From the NCBI GenBank assembly GCA_014799955.1, contig JAAVHB010000117.1, forward strand, positions 1-61,880: DNA of 61,880 nt, given 5' to 3'. A program made the position numbers and the translations under genes. Of this stretch, positions 45,900 to 57,439 are shown piece after piece; position 1 is the first letter of the stretch, and each line of letters starts with the position of its first letter. Under the pieces are notes generated by a model that worked only from the letters and a program-made list of their open reading frames with translations, was not told the DNA's origin and made no database searches. Source of the stretch: Butyrivibrio sp. Lineage in GTDB: Bacteria > Bacillota > Clostridia > Lachnospirales > Lachnospiraceae.

Positions 45900-45961
45900 G
45901 GAAGTTATAAGCTGTCAGTGTGGGTCATGGATAATGCCCAGAAAGAAAGGAGCAGGATAAA

Positions 45962-46155
45962 ATGATGAGCAAGGATAGTTTCACCGCAATTAGCAAATTT
46001 TTATCTCGCACGATAGCACTGCCTACTTGAAGCAATGGACTACAATAAAGATAGCTGCATGGGAAAACGCTGCATTCAAGAGTATGAGCCAGGGCAACAA
46101 AATAGATGAAATCCAGCGCCTTTTCCCCAATAGGTTGTTTATGAACTTCTATTGA
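45962..46155 (+). pseudogene. Frameshifted gene remnant at the left edge of the island
   Basis: AAGGAGCAGGAT precedes ATG 45962, and the first frame closes after 22 codons (TGA). The +2 frame carries a protein-like continuation (FISHDSTAYLKQWTT, then KIAAWENAAFKSMSQG) that ends at TGA 46153-46155. A good ribosome binding site followed by a broken frame suggests a recently damaged gene. FISHDS resembles the opening strand of TIR-like domains, but the fragment is too short to assign. Confidence 0.4.
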
Positions 46156-46173
46156 ACTTTAGGGAAATGGGAA

Positions 46174-46202
46174 TTGTTTTTCTGATATGGTTGGTGTATA
46201 AT
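46174..46202 (+). promoter_or_regulatory. Strong promoter for the defence island
   Basis: TTGTTT (46174-46179) and a perfect TATAAT (46197-46202) at 17 bases. About 115 bases of leader follow, and no other promoter is evident before the six closely packed island genes, so they are probably one transcript. Confidence 0.65.
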
Positions 46203-46318
46203 TTAATTTGTATAAGTGTGTATTTCTGGGTATGACCATCGAAGTACGGACTATACCAAAACTATGAACTGCATCTGAAAGCGGACAAGGGATAACGATT
46301 GGAAAGGGGAGGCTTGTG

Positions 46319-49300
46319 ATGAAAATATTTGACAATATCACAGATATCGTCCGGGATGACTTGAAAACGACCATACAGCGCGGCAGCAAAGTTTCTATAG
46401 CGGCCGCCTGCTTTTCCATGTATGCATACAAAGAACTGAAAAGCCAACTGGAACAGGTTGAAGAATTCCGTTTTATCTTTACCTCCCCCACCTTCGTTCA
46501 AGAGCGAGCCGAAAAGCAAAGACGGGAATTCTACATCCCAAGGCTCAGTAGGGAGACAAGTCTGTACGGAACAGAATTTGAAATCAAGCTGCGCAATGAA
46601 ATGACTCAACGGGCTGTGGCCAGAGAATGTGCTGAGTGGATCAGGCGCAAGGCTACTTTCAAATCCAATGTTACCGGGGAAAATATGATTGGCTTTATGA
46701 CCGTCAATACTTCGACAGAGCAGACTGCCTATATGCCCCTGAACGGATTTACCACGGTGGATATCGGCTGTGAACGCGGCAATAACATCTACAATATGGT
46801 CAACCGAATGGAAGCACCGTTTTCCACCCAATATATGCAGCTGTTTGAAACACTCTGGAATGACCGTGAAAAAATGCAAGATGTAACGGAAATGATCATC
46901 TCCAATATCAGCACAGCCTATAATGAGAATTCGCCGGAGTTTATCTACTTTATGACGCTGTACCATGTTTTCAGTGAATTCTTAAATGATATTTCCGAGG
47001 ATGTACTGCCCAATGAAGCAACTGGCTTTAGGCAGAGCAAAATCTGGAGTATGCTTTATGATTTTCAGCGGGACGCTGTTCTCGCCATTATCAATAAGTT
47101 GGAGCAATACAACGGCTGTATCCTGGCTGACAGCGTGGGGTTGGGCAAAACCTTTACCGCCCTTGCCGTTATCAAATACTATGAGAACAGGAACAAGTCC
47201 GTACTTGTTCTTTGCCCCAAAAAGCTGGCGGAGAACTGGAATACCTATAAGGACAACTATGTCAATAATCCTATCGCTGCCGACCGCTTGAATTATGATG
47301 TACTGTTTCACACCGACCTGTCCCGCTCTGGCGGCACCTCCAACGGACTTGACCTTGACCGGCTGAACTGGGGGAACTATGACCTTGTTGTCATTGACGA
47401 ATCCCACAATTTCCGTAATGGAGCTGGAACTCATGCCAACACGCAGGAGAACCGTTACATAAGGCTGATGGACAGAGTGATTCGTGCGGGCGTTCGGACA
47501 AAGGTACTGATGCTGTCCGCAACACCGGTCAATAACCGCTTTACCGACCTTAAAAACCAGCTTGCCATTGCCTATGAGGGTAACCCGGAATTCATCAATG
47601 AAACGCTGGATACAAAAAAGCCCATTGACGAGATCTTCCGGCAGGCTCAGAAATCGTTCAACGCTTGGAGTAAACTCGACCCAGATGCACGCACCACCGA
47701 TGCTCTGCTCCGTACATTGGACTTTGATTTCTTTGAACTGCTTGACAGTGTGACCATTGCCCGCTCAAGGCGGCACATTGAAAAATATTATGATACGGCG
47801 GCGATCGGACAATTTCCAGAGCGGCTGAAACCAATTTCTCTGCGGCCCAGTATGACCGACCTGTCCAGCGCCATCAATTACAACCAGATATTTGAACTGC
47901 TGACTCAACTGAGCCTTTGCATTTATACGCCCTCAGACTATATTTTTCCGAGCCGGATTGCAAAGTACATCGACTTAACCCACAACAAGGGGAATAACCT
48001 CACCCAGCATGGGCGTGAACAGGGTATCCGACGGCTGATGAGCATCAATCTCTTAAAGCGTTTGGAAAGTTCTGTGTACTCTTTCCAACTGACGCTCACT
48101 CGAATCCTTGACCTGATCACCGGTACTATCAAAGCCATCAATGACTTTGAAAAATATGGCAGAGCCGACATAGATATGGTCGAAGCATCCGAGGATGACT
48201 TTGATATGGAAGACAGCAGTACCGATTATTTCACCGTGGGCAAAAAGGTGAAGATTGATCTGGCCGATATGGACTACAAAACCTGGCGCAGCGAACTGCA
48301 AAAGGATGCGGAGAATCTGGAACTGCTTACTTTGATGATTGCCGATATCACGCCGGAACATGATTTGAAGCTCCGGAATCTTTTAAAATTGTTGGATGAA
48401 AAAATGCAAAGCCCTATCAATGCGGGCAATAAAAAGGTACTGATTTTCTCGGCATTCTCCGACACAGCGGAGTATCTGTATAACCAGGTGGCAGGCTATG
48501 TCAAGGAAAAGTACGGTCTGGATACCGCCGTGATTACCGGGACCATTGACGGAAAAACGACCATCAAAGGATTGAAAGCCACTCTGAACAATGTGCTGAC
48601 CTGTTTCTCTCCCGTCTCCAAAGGACGGGATGTACTGATGCCGGGCAGCACAAAAGAGATCGACATTCTGATTGCCACTGACTGTATTTCTGAGGGACAG
48701 AACTTACAGGACTGCGACTATCTGGTTAACTACGATATCCATTGGAACCCAGTGCGTATTATCCAGCGTTTTGGGCGTATCGACCGTATTGGCAGCAAAA
48801 ACAAGGTGATCCAGTTGGTGAATTTCTGGCCGGATATGACGCTGGACGAGTACATCAATTTGAAATCTCGCGTGGAAACCCGGATGAAGATTTCTGTGAT
48901 GACCTCCACTGGCGACGATGACTTGATCAATCCCGAAGAAAAAGGGGACCTGGAATACCGTAAACAACAGTTGAAGCGGCTCCAGGAGGAAGTGGTGGAT
49001 ATGGAGGATATGTCCACCGGCATCTCCATCATGGACCTGGGACTGAACGAGTTCCGGCTTGATTTGCTGGACTACATCAAAACGCATGGTGACTTGGCGA
49101 AAAAGCCGAAAGGCCTCCATGCGGTCGTTCCCGCAACCGATGAAAACCCGGAGGGCGTGATTTTCGTTCTGCGGAATATCAACAACAGCGTCAATATTGA
49201 CAACCAAAACCGCATTCACCCATTTTATATGGTCTATATCAGTGTGGACGGCGAGGTAGTCTGCGACTACTTGAACCCCAAAAAGCTACTGGATATCATC

Positions 49301-49549
49301 CGGTTATTGTGCCGGGGCAAGTCGGGACCGATCATGACGCTGTGTACAAAATTCAACGAAGAAACGGATGACGGGAAGGACATGAAAGAGGTGTCGCAGC
49401 TTCTTTCTGACGCGATCAACTCTATCATTGATGTGAAAGAAGAAAGCGATATTGACAGTCTGTTTTCTGCTGGCGGGACTTCCGCCTTGATGAATGAGGT
49501 ATCTGGGCTGGATGATTTTGAACTGATATGTTTCCTGGTGGTCAAATAG
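46319..49549 (+). CDS. SNF2-like helicase with PLD-like N-terminal domain
   Basis: A 1076-residue protein. Residues 1-170 resemble the phospholipase D-like N-terminus found on some SNF2 helicases (SIAAACFSMYAYKEL; YMPLNGFTTVDIG), but no HxK(x4)D nuclease motif is visible, so it may only bind DNA. The SF2 helicase has motif I DSVGLGKT (about 272-279), motif II DESH (about 361), motif III LSATPVNN, and motifs V-VI ISEGQNLQ and QRFGRIDRIG (about 815-824). GC-rich codon use differs from the AT-rich helicase at 38641. ATG 46319 has GGGGAGG six bases upstream; GTG 46316 is possible. First gene of the island; such motors commonly translocate on DNA in restriction and DISARM-like systems. Confidence 0.85.
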   Translation: MKIFDNITDIVRDDLKTTIQRGSKVSIAAACFSMYAYKELKSQLEQVEEFRFIFTSPTFVQERAEKQRREFYIPRLSRETSLYGTEFEIKLRNEMTQRAVARECAEWIRRKATFKSNVTGENMIGFMTVNTSTEQTAYMPLNGFTTVDIGCERGNNIYNMVNRMEAPFSTQYMQLFETLWNDREKMQDVTEMIISNISTAYNENSPEFIYFMTLYHVFSEFLNDISEDVLPNEATGFRQSKIWSMLYDFQRDAVLAIINKLEQYNGCILADSVGLGKTFTALAVIKYYENRNKSVLVLCPKKLAENWNTYKDNYVNNPIAADRLNYDVLFHTDLSRSGGTSNGLDLDRLNWGNYDLVVIDESHNFRNGAGTHANTQENRYIRLMDRVIRAGVRTKVLMLSATPVNNRFTDLKNQLAIAYEGNPEFINETLDTKKPIDEIFRQAQKSFNAWSKLDPDARTTDALLRTLDFDFFELLDSVTIARSRRHIEKYYDTAAIGQFPERLKPISLRPSMTDLSSAINYNQIFELLTQLSLCIYTPSDYIFPSRIAKYIDLTHNKGNNLTQHGREQGIRRLMSINLLKRLESSVYSFQLTLTRILDLITGTIKAINDFEKYGRADIDMVEASEDDFDMEDSSTDYFTVGKKVKIDLADMDYKTWRSELQKDAENLELLTLMIADITPEHDLKLRNLLKLLDEKMQSPINAGNKKVLIFSAFSDTAEYLYNQVAGYVKEKYGLDTAVITGTIDGKTTIKGLKATLNNVLTCFSPVSKGRDVLMPGSTKEIDILIATDCISEGQNLQDCDYLVNYDIHWNPVRIIQRFGRIDRIGSKNKVIQLVNFWPDMTLDEYINLKSRVETRMKISVMTSTGDDDLINPEEKGDLEYRKQQLKRLQEEVVDMEDMSTGISIMDLGLNEFRLDLLDYIKTHGDLAKKPKGLHAVVPATDENPEGVIFVLRNINNSVNIDNQNRIHPFYMVYISVDGEVVCDYLNPKKLLDIIRLLCRGKSGPIMTLCTKFNEETDDGKDMKEVSQLLSDAINSIIDVKEESDIDSLFSAGGTSALMNEVSGLDDFELICFLVVK

Positions 49550-49562
49550 GGAGGTGTAGCCT

Positions 49563-50210
49563 ATGCTCGGTCTGCCCAAAAGCACCGAATTTAACCGGCG
49601 CATTCCAAAGCAGAAGTTTTATGAAAACCTTACCATTTCCTCAACATTGAAGCGTGTTTTTGTTGAGCAGATCAAGGTGATCTGGTGGAGAAACAAGATC
49701 GCTCATTCTACGATGAACCTTGCCGCTGGGGAGACTGTAACAGAAATCGAGGTCTTTGAGCTTTGTCTGTCCGCACCGCAGCTGGAGGAGGGCATCCTGC
49801 GGCAGATCGACAAGGAGATACCCTATCACATCCTGTTTTTGCTGGAATATGAGGGCAAATATCAGGCGTGGACAGCCTACAAAGAAACGGTGGGAATCGG
49901 GACGAATGCATTCAAGGTGGGCAGCTACTACTATACCGATTGGATGGAGGAAGCTACCCTACCGCTAAAGCTGGACGGGCTGAATACCGACCAGGTTTAC
50001 GAAAACTTTGTGCGGCAGATTGCGGGGGAGGTTTTTTCCAGAACAGGGGCATCGCTAAAAGAGTCGGTGGAGCGGGACGAACGCAGGAAAGAGTTACAAA
50101 AACAGATTGCGGCTCTGCAAGTAAAGGTGCGCCGGGAACGACAACTAAACAAGCAGGTTCAGTTGAATGCGGAATTGAAAAGATTGAAAAAAGAACTGGA
50201 GGAATTGTAG
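49563..50210 (+). CDS. DUF4391 domain protein
   Basis: A 215-residue protein matching my recollection of DUF4391: PKSTEFNRRIPKQKFYENL at the start, an IKVIWWRNKIAHSTMNL segment, and IPYHILFLLEY. The C-terminal 50 residues are a basic/acidic coiled coil. Function unknown; the family is usually found beside helicases and type III methyltransferases. It lies 13 bases after the helicase gene behind GGGAGG. Confidence 0.75.
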   Translation: MLGLPKSTEFNRRIPKQKFYENLTISSTLKRVFVEQIKVIWWRNKIAHSTMNLAAGETVTEIEVFELCLSAPQLEEGILRQIDKEIPYHILFLLEYEGKYQAWTAYKETVGIGTNAFKVGSYYYTDWMEEATLPLKLDGLNTDQVYENFVRQIAGEVFSRTGASLKESVERDERRKELQKQIAALQVKVRRERQLNKQVQLNAELKRLKKELEEL

Positions 50211-50215
50211 TAACT

Positions 50216-50548
50216 ATGTTAACAGATAATCAAAAGCATATACTTATTGAGTCCATAAAACAATTAACAAATCCGTCGGAATTAGAAAAAGATATTCTTG
50301 ATACCCTGGAGGAAATATCCAAGCAGTCCATTAATATGAAGCACGCACAAGCAAGAATTACTTTAACCTATGAAAAGCATCTTGACTTATATGCAAAAGT
50401 GAGTGCTTTACCTACAACTGTTCAGAAAACTTCCGACCAAATTAGCGAAATGGATTTGCGGTATATCTTACAGATGCAGCTAAATTTTTTGCTTGAAAAG
50501 GAGCAGGAGGAAAAATATCATGGACAAAATGCGCATGGAAACTCTTGA
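50216..50548 (+). CDS. Small AT-rich protein of unknown function between DUF4391 and mod
   Basis: A 110-residue helical, charged protein (LTNPSELEKDILDTLEEI; QMQLNFLLEKEQEEK) that I do not recognise. Its DNA is AT-rich (18 G/C in 50221-50280) against 35 in 49741-49800 of the preceding gene. ATG 50216 is only weakly served by GGAGG 13 bases upstream; the frame continues upstream to 49868, but that part lies inside the DUF4391 gene in another frame. Its end overlaps mod by 29 bases and carries the mod ribosome binding site AGGAGG, so translation is probably coupled. Confidence 0.6.
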   Translation: MLTDNQKHILIESIKQLTNPSELEKDILDTLEEISKQSINMKHAQARITLTYEKHLDLYAKVSALPTTVQKTSDQISEMDLRYILQMQLNFLLEKEQEEKYHGQNAHGNS

Positions 50549-52454
50549 CTTAACTCAGGCTAACATTGAAAAACTTGCCACTCTGTTCCCCGCCTGCGTG
50601 ACCGAGGCGCAGGGTGAAGACGGCCAGCTGAAAAAGGCGGTCAACTTTGAACTGTTACGGCAGATGCTGTCCGATGTGGTTCTGGAGGGTGACGAAGCCT
50701 ATGAATTCACCTGGGTGGGCAAAAAGGCCGCTATCGTGGAGGCTAACCGCCCTATCCGCAAGACTCTGCGCCCCTGCCCAGAGGAAAGCGTGAACTGGGA
50801 CACCACCGAAAACCTCTACATTGAGGGCGACAACCTGGAAGTGCTGAAACTGTTGCAGGAAAGCTATCTGGGCAAGGTGAAGATGATCTACATTGACCCG
50901 CCCTACAACACCGGAAAAGATGTATTTGTATATTTCGATCAGTTTGATATGGAACAAGCTGATTTTGACACAGGTATGTCACGCTATGATGAAGATGGAA
51001 ATCTTAACTTTGCACAGAATCCAGAAAATAGCGCACGTTTTCATTCTGCATGGTGTTCAATGATATATCCATGCCTTCTTCTGGCCCGAAATTTGCTTTG
51101 TCAAAACGGTGTAATATTTATAAGCATTGATAACCATGAAGTTGATAATATGCTGAAAATTTGTGATGAGATATTTGGAATCGCTAATCGGATTGCGTGT
51201 ATTGTCAATGTAAATAATCCCAAAGGACGCTCTGATGAAAAGAACATTGCTACTGCACATGAATATATTGCTGTCTACCAAAAACAGGAGGCTGTGCTTT
51301 CTGGATTTGCCCCAGAAGAAAATGTCCTTCGTCGATACAATAAAATTGATGAAAATGGAAACCGCTACCGCCATATTGACCTTCGTAAAACAGGCGATAG
51401 CGACAGACGTGAGGATCGCCCTAATATGTTTTATTATTTCTACTATAATGAGCAAACAGGTCAATTCTATCCTTCTCACGATGAAGATGGCCCAGAAGGT
51501 TGGATAAAAATCCCCCCCATGAAAGATGATGGGACTGAGGGTAGGTGGCGTGTGGGTATTGAAACGGCTGTTGAACGGCAAGCAATTTTGGAGCCAGTAT
51601 ATATGAGTGTAAAAAAACGTTGGACTGTTATGGAGCGTGATTATTTATCTGATGAACTGAGAGTAAAAGCCACAACCGCATGGACTTATAAAGATTTGAA
51701 TAGTGAAAGAGGAACCGAACAATTTGTTGCTCTTGGATTTGACAAGGAAGTTTTTCCGCGTCCAAAACCATTAGGAACAATTATGAGACCGCTTGAATTA
51801 GCTACTCAAGAAGATGATATTATACTTGACTTCTTCTCCGGTTCTGCCACCACCGCCCATGCTGTGATGCAGCTGAACGCCGAAGATGGTGGTCATCGCA
51901 AATTTATTATGGTGCAATTGCCTGAACCATGCGATGAAAAGAGCGAGGCATACAAGGCAGGCTATCCGAATATCTGCGAAATCGGCAAAGAGCGTATCCG
52001 CCGCGCTGCGAAAAAAATCGCCGAAGAAAATCCGGACAAGTCTTTTGACGGCGGTTTCCGTGTGTTCAAGCTGGACGACACCAATATGACCGATGTCTAC
52101 TACTCCGCCGGAGAATACAGTCAGGATATGCTTTCCCTGCTGGAAAGCAACATCAAGCCCGACCGCACCGACCTTGACTTGCTGTTCGGCTGCCTGCTGG
52201 AGTGGGGTCTGCCCCTTTCCATGCCCTACACCTCCGAACAGATTGAAGGCTGTACCGTCCACACCTACAACGACGGCGACCTGATTGCCTGCTTTGACGA
52301 GAATATTCCTGATACGGTCATCAAAGAGATTGCCAGGCGTCAGCCCCTCCGCGCCGTGTTCCGGGACAGCAGCTTTGCCAACAGCCCCGCCAAAATCAAT
52401 GTGGGTGAGATTTTCAAAATGCTGGCCCCGGACACCAAAGTAAAGGTTTTGTAA
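50520..52454 (+). CDS. mod: Type III DNA methyltransferase (Mod), mosaic
   Basis: A 644-residue beta-class N6-adenine methyltransferase. Catalytic motif IV is DPPYNTG (residues 126-132) and the SAM-binding motif I, FFSGSATTAHA (about 438-448), comes after it, the order of the beta class. The stretch between them (about 300 residues) should be the target-recognition domain. DNA for that middle is AT-rich while both ends are GC-rich (G/C per 60 bases: 35 at 50761, 24 at 51241, 20 at 51601, 36 at 52141), so the recognition part was probably exchanged. ATG 50520 follows AGGAGG by nine bases. Partner of Res at 53519; together they recognise, methylate and cut DNA. Confidence 0.92.
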   Translation: MDKMRMETLDLTQANIEKLATLFPACVTEAQGEDGQLKKAVNFELLRQMLSDVVLEGDEAYEFTWVGKKAAIVEANRPIRKTLRPCPEESVNWDTTENLYIEGDNLEVLKLLQESYLGKVKMIYIDPPYNTGKDVFVYFDQFDMEQADFDTGMSRYDEDGNLNFAQNPENSARFHSAWCSMIYPCLLLARNLLCQNGVIFISIDNHEVDNMLKICDEIFGIANRIACIVNVNNPKGRSDEKNIATAHEYIAVYQKQEAVLSGFAPEENVLRRYNKIDENGNRYRHIDLRKTGDSDRREDRPNMFYYFYYNEQTGQFYPSHDEDGPEGWIKIPPMKDDGTEGRWRVGIETAVERQAILEPVYMSVKKRWTVMERDYLSDELRVKATTAWTYKDLNSERGTEQFVALGFDKEVFPRPKPLGTIMRPLELATQEDDIILDFFSGSATTAHAVMQLNAEDGGHRKFIMVQLPEPCDEKSEAYKAGYPNICEIGKERIRRAAKKIAEENPDKSFDGGFRVFKLDDTNMTDVYYSAGEYSQDMLSLLESNIKPDRTDLDLLFGCLLEWGLPLSMPYTSEQIEGCTVHTYNDGDLIACFDENIPDTVIKEIARRQPLRAVFRDSSFANSPAKINVGEIFKMLAPDTKVKVL

Positions 52455-52466
52455 GGAGGGGGCGAC

Positions 52467-53522
52467 ATGAACGACGAATTTTTGGAAAGCATAGCAAGTG
52501 TTTTAGAAAATGCCAGAAAGAACGCTAAAACAGCGGTGAACCTCACAATGGTCTATGCCTATTTTGAAATTGGCCGGATCATTGTAGAGGAAGAACAGAA
52601 TGGGAAAAACCGTGCCGCCTATGGCAAACAAATTTTGCAGGAACTCTCCGAATATTTGACCGCTCAATTTGGCAAAGGTTTTTCGGTAGGAAATCTGAAA
52701 AATATCCGGCAGTTTTATCGTGTTTACGCTCATGACCGGATTGGAGAAACAGTGTTTAGCCAATTTGAGAATCTGCCTGCCACAGAAACAGGCAGGCGGT
52801 TTTATCTCAGCTGGTCCCATTACCTGAAACTCATGCGTATTGATAATGCGGACGAGCGGCATTTTTACGAAATTGAAGCAATCAAAAATGACTGGAGTCT
52901 ATCGGAACTGAAACGTCAATTCGATAGTGCGCTGTACGAACGGTTGGCCCTGAGCAGAGATAAAGACAAAGTATATGCCCTTGCGCTTGAGGGGCAAACC
53001 CTTGAAACACCGGCGGATGTGGTAAAAGACCCCTATGTTCTCGAATTTTTGGGACTTCAGGAATTGCCAGAATACTCGGAAAACGAAATGGAGAGCCGGA
53101 TTATTGACCACTTGCAGCAGTTTTTGTTGGAGTTGGGCAAAGGCTATGCTTTTGTTGGGCGGCAGGTGCGATTCACCTTTGATGAAGAGCATTTCCGGGT
53201 CGATTTGATTTTTTATAATCGGCTGCTGCGTTGCTTTGTTTTGTTCGATTTGAAAATCGGTGAATTAAAGCACCAGGACATTGGGCAGATGCAGATGTAT
53301 GTCAATTACTATGACCGCAAGGTAAAGCTGGAGGATGAAAACCCAACGATTGGCATCATCTTATGCAAGGACAAAAACAATGCTATTGTTGAAATGACTT
53401 TGCCGGAGGATAACAGCCAGATTTTTGCCAGCAAATACGAAACGGTTCTGCCCAGTAAGGAAGAGCTGCAAAAGCTGTTGATAGAACATCTTGGCGACGG
53501 GGACGGAGGTGAAGAGTCATGA
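52467..53522 (+). CDS. DUF1016 / YhcG-type PD-(D/E)XK nuclease family protein
   Basis: A 351-residue protein. The N-terminal half (about 1-160) is the DUF1016 helical domain (VYAYFEIGRIIVEEEQ; FSVGNLKNIRQFY). The C-terminal half is PD-(D/E)XK-like: RVDLIFYNRLL followed by VLFDLKIGEL, giving Asp and D-x-K at the expected distance, then GQMQMYVNYYD. All catalytic-looking residues are present. Stand-alone members often sit in restriction loci. It follows mod by 12 bases and overlaps res by ATGA, so it is a full member of the operon. Confidence 0.88.
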   Translation: MNDEFLESIASVLENARKNAKTAVNLTMVYAYFEIGRIIVEEEQNGKNRAAYGKQILQELSEYLTAQFGKGFSVGNLKNIRQFYRVYAHDRIGETVFSQFENLPATETGRRFYLSWSHYLKLMRIDNADERHFYEIEAIKNDWSLSELKRQFDSALYERLALSRDKDKVYALALEGQTLETPADVVKDPYVLEFLGLQELPEYSENEMESRIIDHLQQFLLELGKGYAFVGRQVRFTFDEEHFRVDLIFYNRLLRCFVLFDLKIGELKHQDIGQMQMYVNYYDRKVKLEDENPTIGIILCKDKNNAIVEMTLPEDNSQIFASKYETVLPSKEELQKLLIEHLGDGDGGEES

Positions 53523-56500
53523 AAATACAGTACCGGCACCAGAAATTTCAGGCAGACGCCGCCAAGGCAGTAGTCGATGTCTTTGCCGGTCAGCCTTATC
53601 TGACTCCCACCTATATGATGGACAGAGGCAGCGGTAACTACCAAATTGGTGTTAATGAAGAACAGGATTTTACCGGCTTTGGCAATCAGAAAATTGTGCC
53701 GGAGCTTTCTGACCGGCAGATACTGGAGCAGCTGAACAAAATTCAGCGCACAAACCAGATCAAGCCATCGGAAAAACTGGAAGGGCGGGAAAACGGCTAC
53801 AACCTTACCGTTGAGATGGAAACCGGCGTTGGCAAGACCTATACCTATATCAAGACAATGTTTGAGTTGAACAAGCGCTATGGCTGGAGCAAGTTCATTG
53901 TGGTTGTTCCCAGTGTGGCAATCCGAGAGGGCGTGTATAAGTCCTTTGAGATGACACAGGAACATTTTGCCGAGGAGTATGGGAAGAAGATACGGTTTTT
54001 TATCTACAACTCCGCTCAGCTGACGGAGATCGACCGCTTTGCGTCGGATAACTCCATCAATGTAATGATTATCAATTCCCAGGCGTTCAACGCCAAAGGC
54101 AAGGATGCCCGCAGAATTTATATGAAATTGGACGAGTTCCGCTCCCGTCGGCCCATCGACATTATTGCCAGGACAAACCCAATCCTTATTATTGACGAGC
54201 CGCAATCGGTAGAGGGCAAGCAAACCAAGGAACGGCTGAAAGAATTCCACCCACTTCTGACCCTGCGTTACTCCGCCACCCATAAGAGCGACAGCATCTA
54301 CAACATGGTGTTCCGGCTGGATGCTATGGAGGCCTACAATCGGCGGCTGGTCAAAAAGATTGCCGTAAAAGGAATCACCGAGTCGGGAACTACGGCCACT
54401 GATAGCTTTATCTATCTGGAGAGCATCAACCTTTCCAAAAGCGATCCCACCGCCACCTTGCAGTTCGAGGTGAAGATGGCCAGCGGCTCACCCAAGAGAA
54501 AGAGTCGTATCGTCAAAATCGGAGACAATCTTTACGACTACTCCGGCGGTCTGGAGGAATACAGAAACGGTTTTGTAGTCAAGCAGATCGACGGGCGCGA
54601 TGACTCTGTGGAGTTTCTGAACGGCATTAAAATCTTCGCGGGAGATGTGATTGGTGCAGTAGATGAGGATCAGCTTCGGCGCATCCAGATACGGGAAACA
54701 ATCCTTTCTCATCTCCAGAGGGAGCGTCAGCTGTTTTACAAAGGCATCAAAGTCCTCTCCCTGTTCTTCATTGATGAAGTGGCAAATTACCGGGAATACG
54801 ATGCGGCAAATCAACCTGTCAATGGCAAATACGCCTCTATGTTCGAGGAGGAATATGCGGATGTCATAAGCACTATGCAGCTCGCTATTGGCGAGGATGA
54901 GTATATCAAGTATTTGCAGTCCATCCCTGCAGCAAAAACTCACGCCGGATATTTCTCTGTGGACGGCAAAGGCAAAATGGTGAACTCCAAGGTAGGGAAC
55001 AAGGAAACGACCTCCGACGATGTAAGCGCCTATGAACTTATTATGAAGAACAAGGAGTTACTGTTGGATCGTGATCCGGCACGTTCTCCTGTACGGTTTA
55101 TTTTTTCCCATTCTGCCCTCCGTGAGGGATGGGATAACCCGAATGTGTTCCAGATCTGCACTTTGAAGCAAAGCGGCAGCGATGTCCGCAAGCGTCAGGA
55201 AGTTGGACGGGGTTTGCGCCTTTGCGTCAATCAAAGTGGCGAGCGGATGGATACCAATGTCCTCGGTAACGATGTGCATAATATCAATATCCTTACCGTC
55301 ATTGCCAGTGAGAGCTATGATTCTTTTGCTAAGGGTCTGCAAACAGAAATGGCCGAAGCGATTGCTGACCGTCCCCATGCTGTCACGATTGAACTTTTTG
55401 TTGGCAAGGTTATCAAAGACGAACAAGGCAATGAACAGGTCATCGACCAGGATACAGCTTCTGCCATCCACTATGATATGATTGTCAACGACTATATCGA
55501 CCGCAAGGGTGTACTGACCGACAAATATTACGAAGACAAAGCGAACGGTGAAATCAAAGTAGCGGAAGAAGTTGCGGACTCGGCCGCTTCTGTGCTTGAG
55601 ATTATAGATTCTGTCTATGATGCCCGAAGTATGTATCCGGAAAATGCCCGCAGCAACAACGTGGAACTGCAAGTGGACGAGGAGAAGCTGTCCATGCCGG
55701 AATTCAAGGCTCTTTGGTCAAGGATCAATGCCAAATCTGTCTATATTGTGGATTTCGATACCGAGGAGCTGATTCAAAAATCAATTGTTGCTCTTAACAG
55801 TAAACTGCGTGTTTCCAAGATACACTTTCAGGTGGAAACCGGAGCAATGGATGTAATAAAATCAAAAGAGGAACTGCTGTCCGGCGTATCTTTTGTGAAA
55901 GAAGAATCCGCCAGTTTTGGTGTGACTATGGCGGCAAATTCCAATGTGAAGTATGACTTGATTGGAAAGCTGGTCGATGAAACGGGACTGACCCGCAAAG
56001 CCATTGTCGCCATTCTAAAAGGCATTCGGTCATCTGTTTTCGGTCAGTTTAGTGATAACCCGGAGGAGTTTATCGTCAAAGCCGCCGCCTTGATCAACGA
56101 TGAAAAGGCAACAGCGGTTATTGAACATATTACCTATGATGTCCTGGACGATTGCTACGGGACAGATGTCTTTACTGACCCGACTATCAAAGGCAGGCTT
56201 GGCGTAAATGCAATGAAGGCGAAAAAGCACTTGTATGACCATATCGTTTATGATTCGACCGGGGAGCGGGATTTTGCCGCCGAACTTGACATAAATACCA
56301 ATGTGGCAGTCTATGTGAAACTGCCGGACGGTTTTTATATTGCAACGCCAGTCGGTCATTATAACCCGGACTGGGCTATTGCTTTTTATGAGGGAACTGT
56401 CAAGCACATCTATTTTGTAGCGGAAACAAAAGGCTCCATGCGTTCTATGCAGCTACGGTTGATTGAGGAATCCAAAATCCACTGCGCAAGAGAACATTTC

Positions 56501-56578
56501 AAAGCCATCTCAGGCGACAATGTGGTGTACGATGTGGTGGACAGCTATAAATCGTTACTGGAGAAGATCATGCGCTAA
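53519..56578 (+). CDS. res: Type III restriction endonuclease subunit Res
   Basis: A 1019-residue SF2 helicase-nuclease. Walker A is ETGVGKT (about 101-108), motif II IIDEPQ (about 225), motif III LRYSATH, later motifs ALREGWDNPN and RQEVGRGLRL. The C-terminal nuclease has Pro950-Asp951, Glu969 and Lys971 (PDWAI ... AETKG), the classical PD-ExK of type III Res proteins, so it should be active. It needs Mod for DNA recognition and uses ATP hydrolysis to communicate along DNA. Start coupled to the DUF1016 gene by a four-base overlap. No terminator is evident behind it. Confidence 0.95.
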   Translation: MKIQYRHQKFQADAAKAVVDVFAGQPYLTPTYMMDRGSGNYQIGVNEEQDFTGFGNQKIVPELSDRQILEQLNKIQRTNQIKPSEKLEGRENGYNLTVEMETGVGKTYTYIKTMFELNKRYGWSKFIVVVPSVAIREGVYKSFEMTQEHFAEEYGKKIRFFIYNSAQLTEIDRFASDNSINVMIINSQAFNAKGKDARRIYMKLDEFRSRRPIDIIARTNPILIIDEPQSVEGKQTKERLKEFHPLLTLRYSATHKSDSIYNMVFRLDAMEAYNRRLVKKIAVKGITESGTTATDSFIYLESINLSKSDPTATLQFEVKMASGSPKRKSRIVKIGDNLYDYSGGLEEYRNGFVVKQIDGRDDSVEFLNGIKIFAGDVIGAVDEDQLRRIQIRETILSHLQRERQLFYKGIKVLSLFFIDEVANYREYDAANQPVNGKYASMFEEEYADVISTMQLAIGEDEYIKYLQSIPAAKTHAGYFSVDGKGKMVNSKVGNKETTSDDVSAYELIMKNKELLLDRDPARSPVRFIFSHSALREGWDNPNVFQICTLKQSGSDVRKRQEVGRGLRLCVNQSGERMDTNVLGNDVHNINILTVIASESYDSFAKGLQTEMAEAIADRPHAVTIELFVGKVIKDEQGNEQVIDQDTASAIHYDMIVNDYIDRKGVLTDKYYEDKANGEIKVAEEVADSAASVLEIIDSVYDARSMYPENARSNNVELQVDEEKLSMPEFKALWSRINAKSVYIVDFDTEELIQKSIVALNSKLRVSKIHFQVETGAMDVIKSKEELLSGVSFVKEESASFGVTMAANSNVKYDLIGKLVDETGLTRKAIVAILKGIRSSVFGQFSDNPEEFIVKAAALINDEKATAVIEHITYDVLDDCYGTDVFTDPTIKGRLGVNAMKAKKHLYDHIVYDSTGERDFAAELDINTNVAVYVKLPDGFYIATPVGHYNPDWAIAFYEGTVKHIYFVAETKGSMRSMQLRLIEESKIHCAREHFKAISGDNVVYDVVDSYKSLLEKIMR

Positions 56579-56689: not shown

Positions 56690-56848
56690 CTATCGAATAG
56701 CGGCAAGTTGGGCAAGGGACTGCCTGGACAATTCCCATATCTCGTCCAGACGATTTTGCAAAGCCTTAATATCTGCCGCATAGATACTGCCGGATTCGTT
56801 GACCCGTTTGAGAGCCTTAGAGAACACCACATACACCGTCAAGGACAT
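56690..56848 (-). pseudogene. Minus-strand gene fragment at the right edge of the island
   Basis: On the minus strand a frame closes at plus-strand 56690-56692 (TAG) and carries a convincing protein end: KRVNESGSIYAADI then KALQNRLDEIWELSRQ. An ATG at 56846-56848 would give 52 residues, but it has no ribosome binding site, and the frame meets a stop near 56888. It reads as the C-terminal piece of a larger helical protein cut off when the island inserted or was rearranged. Origin unknown. Confidence 0.4.
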
Positions 56849-56875
56849 TTCAGCAAGGACATCGACAAGACTTTT

Positions 56876-57439
56876 ATGGACAGGGTGTTTTTTTTAGATA
56901 CCATAGACTCAGTGCAGGATGAAATCAAGGACTTTCCGGATACGGGTCTGTACAGGGTAAATATGCTTAAATACAATGTGTCGCCGGATATGGGTGGTGT
57001 AACATATGACGGTGTCTGCAAATGGAAAGCCTTTTTGAGTGTGGATTTGGACCGGGACGGAATAAAAGAAGTTATAGTACAAAGGGATTCCGGCTCTATG
57101 ATGTCGCTTCATTATGCCGGAGGAGAGGTATATATGACGAAGGTTCCGAATTCATTGGGGTATGAAATATACGAAAACGGAGTATGGACTGCAACTAACG
57201 GAGCTTTTGGAATTTGTTATTGGCGGATATATCCTGCCAAGGGAGCAATGTATATACAAAAACTGGCAGAAGAGAATCGCAGAGGTTACGGCAGTCCGTT
57301 GGAAACATATATGATTATGGATAAGAGCGTTACGATGGAGGAGCACGACGCCTATGTCGAGCGGCTTGTCGGCGGCTTAACCCCTCTTGAGTGGTACGAT
57401 TTTACCGAAGAGAATATCGACAGATACGTTATCGATTAA
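56876..57439 (+). CDS. Probably 5'-truncated gene, unknown function
   Basis: About 187 residues from the ATG at 56876. The frame is open back to 56708, but that part lies antisense to the minus-strand fragment and is not protein-like. The rest is well formed, with SVDLDRDGIKEVIV, a calcium-binding-type Asp loop as in FG-GAP/EF-like repeats, and an acidic C-terminus. There is no signal peptide or ribosome binding site, so the real N-terminus seems to be missing. I treat it as a host gene cut by the island's right boundary (near 56850-56890, beside an eight-T run). Confidence 0.45.
   Translation: MDRVFFLDTIDSVQDEIKDFPDTGLYRVNMLKYNVSPDMGGVTYDGVCKWKAFLSVDLDRDGIKEVIVQRDSGSMMSLHYAGGEVYMTKVPNSLGYEIYENGVWTATNGAFGICYWRIYPAKGAMYIQKLAEENRRGYGSPLETYMIMDKSVTMEEHDAYVERLVGGLTPLEWYDFTEENIDRYVID

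What the first reader, a model, noticed from the sequence alone, without database searches (positions are those of the whole stretch)
46174..56578. Expanded type III restriction-modification island with PLD-SNF2 helicase, DUF4391 and DUF1016 nuclease
Six tightly packed genes under one promoter combine complete Mod and Res with a PLD-SNF2 helicase, a DUF4391 protein, a small unknown protein and a separate PD-(D/E)XK nuclease. Ordinary type III systems need only Mod and Res. A second motor and a second nuclease, with overlapping or nearly overlapping genes, suggest one larger machine. I know related pieces (SNF2 helicase plus methylase in class 1 DISARM, PLD proteins in DISARM) but no named system with exactly this content.
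Basis: partly seen in the sequence, partly recalled or inferred. Interest (0 to 1): 0.82.

Follow-up and report, generated by a model that had tools for sequence, protein, structure and literature searches.

The report
Four-gene type III restriction system
A bacterial anti-virus gene island that looks like a known DNA-cutting system carries two extra, nearly always present partner genes (a DNA motor and a protein of unknown function) plus interchangeable add-on genes, so an unexplained protein family can now be placed in a testable machine.

Summary
The window holds six tandem genes: pseudo-PLD/SNF2 motor (HEL), DUF4391, a 110-aa orphan, Mod, DUF1016 (YhcG), Res. HEL-DUF4391-Mod-Res is a conserved set in fixed order: detected in 38 of 38 HEL-anchored loci with at least 9 kb downstream (one shorter locus, L112, lacks Mod). 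Anchored on DUF4391, HEL or a remnant lies upstream in 41 of 43 places, Mod and Res downstream in 37 of 39. DUF1016 and the orphan are not core: they sit in two gaps whose content differs even between nearly identical islands. HEL's PLD domain has lost its HKD residues (H and K/R kept in 2 of 114), its ATPase motifs are kept: two motors, one core nuclease. Mod-Res occurs without HEL-DUF4391; HEL without Mod-Res was seen once. Best reading: an extended type III restriction-modification system whose second motor and DUF4391 act on Mod/Res-engaged DNA, with exchangeable effectors. Our searches of an open library found no description. The mechanism is inferred, not shown.

The parts
46319..49549 (+). 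HEL: SNF2-family motor with an N-terminal degenerate PLD (HKD) domain; core
   Evidence: core
49563..50210 (+). DUF4391 protein, C-terminal stretch looks like a coiled coil (inferred); core, normally directly after HEL
   Evidence: PF14335 1.1e-58
50216..50548 (+). 110-aa orphan protein in cargo slot 1 (DUF4391-Mod gap); candidate effector by position only
   Evidence: ends; no Pfam or PADLOC family; no relative found
50520..52454 (+). Mod: type III DNA methyltransferase (DPPY at residues 126-129) with a variable central target-recognition region; core
52467..53522 (+). DUF1016/YhcG PD-(D/E)XK nuclease in cargo slot 2 (Mod-Res gap); optional
53519..56578 (+). Res: type III restriction subunit, SF2 motor plus C-terminal PD-ExK nuclease; core

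Best explanation
This is an extended type III restriction-modification system. Mod methylates one strand of an asymmetric site and, through its exchangeable target-recognition region, sets specificity; Res is the motor nuclease that cuts DNA whose sites are unmodified (both from established type III biology). HEL and DUF4391 form a near-constant two-gene module that depends on Mod-Res. I propose that DUF4391 is the adaptor that docks HEL on Mod or Mod-Res, and that HEL, an ATP-driven duplex translocase with a catalytically dead PLD domain used for binding, provides a second motor acting in cis or trans on engaged complexes: moving, activating or removing them, and so loosening the usual need for two inverted unmethylated sites or clearing obstacles. 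In addition the operon has two gaps (DUF4391-Mod and Mod-Res) that hold interchangeable genes, many of defence families, here the 110-aa orphan and DUF1016, most likely back-up or guard effectors of the PrrC kind. Shown by sequence: gene content, fixed order, asymmetry of dependence, loss of HKD residues, conserved catalytic motifs of Mod, Res and the HEL ATPase, exchange of TRD and cargo. Inferred: a physical complex, the second motor's task, the guard role of cargo, the target site.
For: Linkage: 38 of 38 HEL-anchored loci with at least 9 kb downstream; DUF4391-anchored 41 of 43 and 37 of 39, misses being the decayed L024 and two hits under Pfam's cut-off, L091 and L092 (the 41 count HEL pieces too, as in L025, L081, L086, L089). 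Spread: HEL in 13 phyla, complete sets in 8; plasmids; 5 of 5 viral contigs with HEL before DUF4391. Pairwise distances of the four proteins rank-correlate (rho 0.67-0.85, maxima of 200 permutations 0.17-0.23; 71 loci, two contigs twice); without an unlinked control gene this shows shared descent only. HKD lost, ATPase motifs kept. Mod DPPY and Res GxGKT, DEPQ, PD and ExK residues in 71 of 71 loci, which were picked for near-full-length genes. Mod is most variable at about residues 225-395. Exchange: L016/L107 and L072/L075 are 92-96% identical in DNA up to the end of DUF4391 and again from the Mod C-terminus, with no match in cargo and TRD between.
Against: Mod-Res occurs without HEL: L182 beside flagellar genes; in L024, L086 and L089 HEL and DUF4391 are remnants or missing while Mod and Res are open. 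Ten Res loci had upstream room and no HEL by my threshold. L112 has HEL with a short DUF4391 and no Mod in the 5.5 kb after it. In several of the 38 loci a core gene is split over two or more frames (for example L102, L113, L130, L150, L155, L162, L171), so detected does not mean intact.
Confidence: 0.5

Rival explanations
1. HEL-DUF4391 is a separate second restriction module (DISARM- or BREX-related in logic) that reads Mod's methylation as the self mark and blocks unmodified DNA without Res, giving two effectors on one mark.
For: HEL has weaker matches to DrmD, BrxH and DpdE helicases; type-2 BREX-related systems pair an HKD-SNF2 helicase with a small DUF and a methylase (PMC12839542, passages and one section).
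Against: HKD residues are gone in 112 of 114, DUF4391 matched no other Pfam, PADLOC or NCBIfam family, and HEL goes with Res as well as Mod (38 of 38).
Confidence: 0.22
2. HEL-DUF4391 is a safety or housekeeping module: it strips or restrains Mod-Res complexes on the cell's own half-modified DNA, for example on entry into a new host.
For: The set is found on plasmids, and L072/L075 share about 94% DNA identity with flanks although their genomes are of different families, so it moves between hosts (inference); SNF2/RapA-type motors strip DNA-bound proteins (recalled).
Against: HEL and DUF4391 decay while Mod and Res stay open (L024, L086, L089; L182 without them), which a needed safety device should not allow.
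Confidence: 0.17
3. One six-part machine in which DUF1016 and the small protein are required subunits.
For: Tight packing, overlaps of 4 and 29 bp.
Against: DUF1016 in 8 of 32 slot-2 ORFs and in 4 of 38 complete HEL-anchored loci; orphan not found elsewhere; slot 1 unrelated (7) or empty on one side (3) in 10 of 10 pairs with HEL distance under 0.08 (pairs share loci).
Confidence: 0.04
4. Chance cluster of a plain type III system and neighbours.
For: Ten Res loci with upstream room have no HEL by my threshold.
Confidence: 0.02

Closest known systems
Type III restriction-modification (EcoP15I)
   Same: Mod and Res of the type III kind; both match EcoP15I chains in the PDB (4zcf; Res 1.5e-64, Mod 1.3e-58; Mod's best hit is another Mod, 6k0w, 5.5e-60)
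   Different: EcoP15I is described as Mod2Res1 or Mod2Res2 from two genes (passages of PMC4490356, and PMC12707154); here two further near-constant genes and two cargo slots
DISARM class 1 (DrmD SNF2 helicase)
   Same: SNF2 helicase beside a DNA methylase
   Different: HEL is below the DrmD cut-offs (152 of 610 and 98 of 950 bits); methylase is type III Mod; no island gene has DrmA, DrmB or DrmC as best match
Type-2 BREX-related systems
   Same: HKD domain N-terminal to a SNF2 helicase, with a small DUF and an N6-methylase (PMC12839542, passages and section 30)
   Different: No DUF499 or DUF3780 match among the seven window ORFs scanned; HKD residues lost; Res present
HKD-helicase fusions of other systems (PbeA; MORC-linked type III-like operons)
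   Same: HKD domain fused to an SF2 helicase (passages of PMC10853773, and PMC2292703)
   Different: Partners there are an ABC ATPase and DndE, or a MORC ATPase; no DUF4391 is named in the passages seen
PrrC-EcoPrrI and RM operons with embedded HEPN, RhuM or DOC genes
   Same: Effectors nested inside an RM operon (passages of PMC3710099, and PMC12707154)
   Different: The passages seen do not describe this four-gene type III core

Membership tests
Type III restriction-modification | Mod: N6 methylase of the type III family with an internal TRD | tested here: met
   PADLOC MTase_III 693 bits; DPPYNT in 71 of 71 picked loci; variable region at about residues 225-395
Type III restriction-modification | Res: SF2 motor plus C-terminal PD-(D/E)XK nuclease | tested here: met
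   PADLOC REase_III 955 bits, RE_endonuc 2e-34; PD and ExK residues in 71 of 71 picked loci
Type III restriction-modification | One-strand methylation, cleavage needing two inverted sites | not testable with these tools
   biochemistry needed
DISARM class 1 | SNF2 helicase scoring as DrmD | tested here: not met
   152 bits against 610
DISARM class 1 | DrmA, DrmB, DrmC in the locus | tested here: not met
   six ORFs scanned with PADLOC; none has DrmA/B/C as best match, HEL has a weak DrmA match of 80 bits; the orphan gave none; other window genes not scanned
Type-2 BREX-related system | DUF499 ATPase and DUF3780 | tested here: not met
   no match among seven window ORFs scanned
Active PLD (HKD) nuclease | HxK and GSSNFT-type motif at the aligned place | tested here: not met
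   window reads GFM and PLNGFT there; H with K or R in 2 of 114 (L059 HGK, L055 HQR), only L059 with GSSNFT-type motif intact as seen; 20 of 114 have an HxK/R somewhere in the first 230 residues
DUF1016/YhcG nuclease | DUF1016_N plus YhcG_C | tested here: met
   9.8e-43 and 1.7e-59

The most novel reading that the evidence does not exclude
HEL-DUF4391 gives a type III enzyme a new restriction mode: a Mod-loaded pseudo-PLD SNF2 translocase supplies the second, trans-acting motor, so DNA with single or same-orientation sites, which classical type III enzymes spare, is also cut. The operon is at the same time a swap platform in which TRD and nested effectors are exchanged together, so specificity and guard change in one recombination.
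Probability: 0.25. Interest if true: 0.85.

Novelty: new variant of a known kind. Interest (0 to 1): 0.62.

Why it matters
It places an uncharacterised Pfam family (DUF4391) in one system: among the sampled DUF4391 places over the cut-off with enough upstream sequence, only the decayed L024 lacked HEL or a piece of it. It suggests that a good share of type III systems are four-gene systems with a second motor (in 398 genomes of the phylum Res relatives occur in 63 and HEL in 32), so a two-gene test may miss how they behave. Slot 1 is a positional screen for new effectors. Natural copies occur in E. coli, mostly on plasmids (10 of 5426 genomes hold a match to the copy searched, 9 covering at least 80%), which makes tests in laboratory strains straightforward.

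Tried and rejected
Considered and rejected: DISARM, type-2 BREX-related, active PLD nuclease in HEL, DUF1016 as a core part, chance cluster. Tried without result: PDB searches with DUF4391 and the HEL N-terminus (the best DUF4391 profile hits were coiled-coil designs at E 0.11 and 0.3, not significant); PHROGs for the orphan (0.057, not significant) and for DUF4391 (one unknown family, 2.7e-4); tblastn of the orphan in plasmids. Literature; DUF4391 appears in one paper of the library (PMC7784981, one table entry). The library lacks most subscription papers and supplements were not searched, so 'not in print' means not found there.

Limits of the counts. Gene calls are stop-to-stop ORFs scored by HMMs trained partly on the same loci. 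Two contigs occur twice (L066/L140, L070/L148: distance 0 in all four proteins). Of the 80, 38 had at least 9 kb downstream, 30 had 1-9 kb (13 with all three genes, 12 to Mod, 4 to DUF4391, 1 with none: L114, where another ORF follows HEL) and 12 under 1 kb (7 with none, 5 with DUF4391). The DUF4391 count used 49 places; the window itself and two second fragments at places already counted were left out, and HEL counted from 30 bits up, so pieces are included. In the local run L067, L076 and L080 show no DUF4391, although Pfam finds it there over the cut-off. Searches scored at most two candidates a genome, so their counts are lower bounds. The genome tallies include the window's own genome. 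Slot ORFs under 90 aa, overlapping ORFs and those of the broken loci L025 and L081 were left out before the family scans; three of the 32 slot-2 ORFs (L183, L190, L191) come from loci with no HEL in view, and the family tables show only the first 25 of 51 (Pfam) and 310 (PADLOC) families, so the number of ORFs without any match is not known. Of the relatives of DUF1016 I read 12 places of my choice.
Full report
What is there. The island at 46319-56578 has six tandem genes on the + strand: HEL (SNF2 motor with an N-terminal PLD-like domain), DUF4391, a 110-aa orphan, type III Mod, DUF1016/YhcG and type III Res. Neighbours are 5-13 bp apart or overlap by 4 and 29 bp. The consensus scan does not point to a promoter before HEL. 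Mod and Res match the EcoP15I subunits in the PDB.

Core against cargo. Pfam DUF4391 was found in 12 of 195 relatives, own genome included, 10 of them over the cut-off, and in 34 of 398 genomes of the phylum, own included. In the neighbourhoods fetched (49 places), HEL or a piece of it lies upstream in 41 of 43 places with at least 4 kb upstream, and Mod and Res downstream in 37 of 39 with at least 8 kb; the misses are a decayed locus (L024) and two hits under Pfam's cut-off (L091, L092). From the other side, 80 HEL relatives in named genomes give DUF4391, Mod and Res in this order in 38 of 38 loci with at least 9 kb downstream; in some of these a gene is split over several frames. One locus with 6.0 kb downstream, L112, has a short DUF4391 and no Mod. 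The 80 loci lie in 13 phyla by the tool's taxonomy (one has none), and 37 of the 38 complete ones that I looked up in 8; contamination of metagenome bins could add false phyla. Plasmids of Methylotuvimicrobium, Enterobacter, Escherichia and Acinetobacter carry the same set with DUF4391 annotated; one Enterococcus and one Listeria plasmid read here carry it with a divergent DUF4391 annotated as hypothetical, and the Listeria Mod is in two frames.

Asymmetry. Over the same 398 phylum genomes Res relatives occur in 63 and HEL in 32. Of 108 distinct Res proteins in the loci held, 80 had HEL and DUF4391 upstream; 3 had HEL, with a DUF4391 that my local profile missed but Pfam finds over its cut-off; 5 had DUF4391 only (one of them, L056, starts at a contig end); 10 had neither by my threshold despite at least 6.5 kb of room; 10 could not be judged. 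In the main Res clade of 87, 74 carry both and 4 lack both with room; three of those four (L184-L186) have a Res of 792-814 aa with no match to the C-terminal nuclease. The fourth, L182, is a two-gene Mod-Res beside flagellar genes. In L024, L086 and L089 HEL and DUF4391 are remnants or missing while Mod and Res are open. So HEL-DUF4391 depends on Mod-Res rather than the reverse; L112 is the one case seen against it.

The PLD domain looks dead. Relative L059 has a PLDc_2 match and an HxK...GSSNFT motif. In the alignment of 114 HEL proteins only L059 has H-x-K at that place and L055 has H-x-R; the window reads GFM and PLNGFT there. Twenty of the 114 have an HxK or HxR somewhere in the first 230 residues, but not at the aligned place except for these two. 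The SNF2 motifs are kept in all 114, apart from single substitutions such as T for S in SATP (2) and V for I in GRIDR (12). So the core has two motors and one likely nuclease, that of Res.

Cargo slots. HEL and DUF4391 usually touch (median gap -1 in 116 pairs, over 400 bp in 11). The DUF4391-Mod gap exceeds 400 bp in 52 of 108 and the Mod-Res gap in 27 of 113, all loci held being counted, broken and duplicate ones too. In slot 1, 70 ORFs scanned (the orphan included) matched most often AAA_21 (7), SMC_N (6), AAA_13 (4), YobI-ATPase, AAA_15, PDDEXK_3, Schlafen, TIR_2 and OLD-TOPRIM (3 each), Fic and SIR2_2 (2 each), SMODS and AbiH (1 each); one protein can match several. PADLOC matches include AriA, GajA, PrrC, Old and AbiLi. 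In slot 2, 32 ORFs gave RhuM 10, DUF1016/YhcG 8, Fic 2, GmrSD 1. Among 10 pairs with HEL distance under 0.08, slot 1 held unrelated cargo in 7 and was empty on one side in 3; slot 2 was empty in both in 6, in one in 3, and unrelated in 1. Under 0.2, slot 1 was unrelated in 67 pairs, empty on one side in 67, empty in both in 15, homologous in 1; the pairs share loci and are not independent. L016/L107 and L072/L075 show why: DNA is 92-96% identical up to the end of DUF4391 and again from the Mod C-terminus on, while cargo and TRD between do not match and the Mod N-terminus is only 66-79% identical. In window/L093 the Mod N-terminus matches at 88% but TRD and cargo do not. Specificity and cargo are thus both exchanged, in the first two pairs together.

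How it may work. EcoP15I diffuses on DNA and cuts when it meets a second, site-bound enzyme, with two sites in inverted orientation (passages of PMC4490356); a phage whose sites are all head-to-tail is contrasted with T3, which is restricted (passage of PMC12707154; that the first phage is T7 is recalled). I infer that HEL is a second duplex motor recruited by DUF4391, which acts on Mod-Res complexes. The embedded effectors fit a proposal made for HEPN and PrrC-like genes in RM operons, that the RM subunits hold the effector in check and let it loose when a phage blocks them, with RhuM and DOC as further toxins of the same loci (passages of PMC3710099). None of this was tested here.

Known or new. 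It meets the sequence criteria for a type III system and fails those tested for DISARM and type-2 BREX-related systems. Searches for DUF4391, for PF14335 and model names and several combinations gave no paper whose listing or passages describe the four-gene unit. PADLOC already has a model that covers HEL ('HKD+Snf2'). I file it as a new variant of a known kind.

Noticed in passing
window 56708-57439: 243-aa ORF directly after the island with no match in Pfam, PADLOC, NCBIfam or PHROGs; unknown.
   Followed up: partly
window 45940-46160: Short interrupted reading frames before HEL look, by eye, like a gene remnant; not analysed further.
   Followed up: no
L214 (own genome, contig C106): A second DUF1016 gene (55% identical) lies beside a ResIII-type protein, an Eco57I-like methylase and a STAND-type NTPase: a second restriction-type island.
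   Followed up: partly
L184, L185, L186: Mod-Res pairs without HEL in which Res is 792-814 aa and has no match to the C-terminal nuclease region: decay or a nuclease-less form.
   Followed up: partly
L189, L190, L192: Helicase ORFs with weak HEL matches (38, 93 and 96 bits) lie upstream of Mod on its strand; possibly another SNF2 partner in place of HEL. Counted as lacking HEL, or not judged (L192).
   Followed up: no
L146:3-701: A Mod-like fragment begins with a run of near-identical short peptide repeats, possibly a repeat tract of phase-variation type.
   Followed up: no
L200-L204: Five contigs of the viral collection carry HEL next to DUF4391, four of them with Mod; prophage, satellite or misfiled contigs not told apart.
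   Followed up: no
L175: Enterobacter plasmid copy has a WYL-domain gene before HEL and an ATP-dependent endonuclease plus DUF2130 in slot 1.
   Followed up: no
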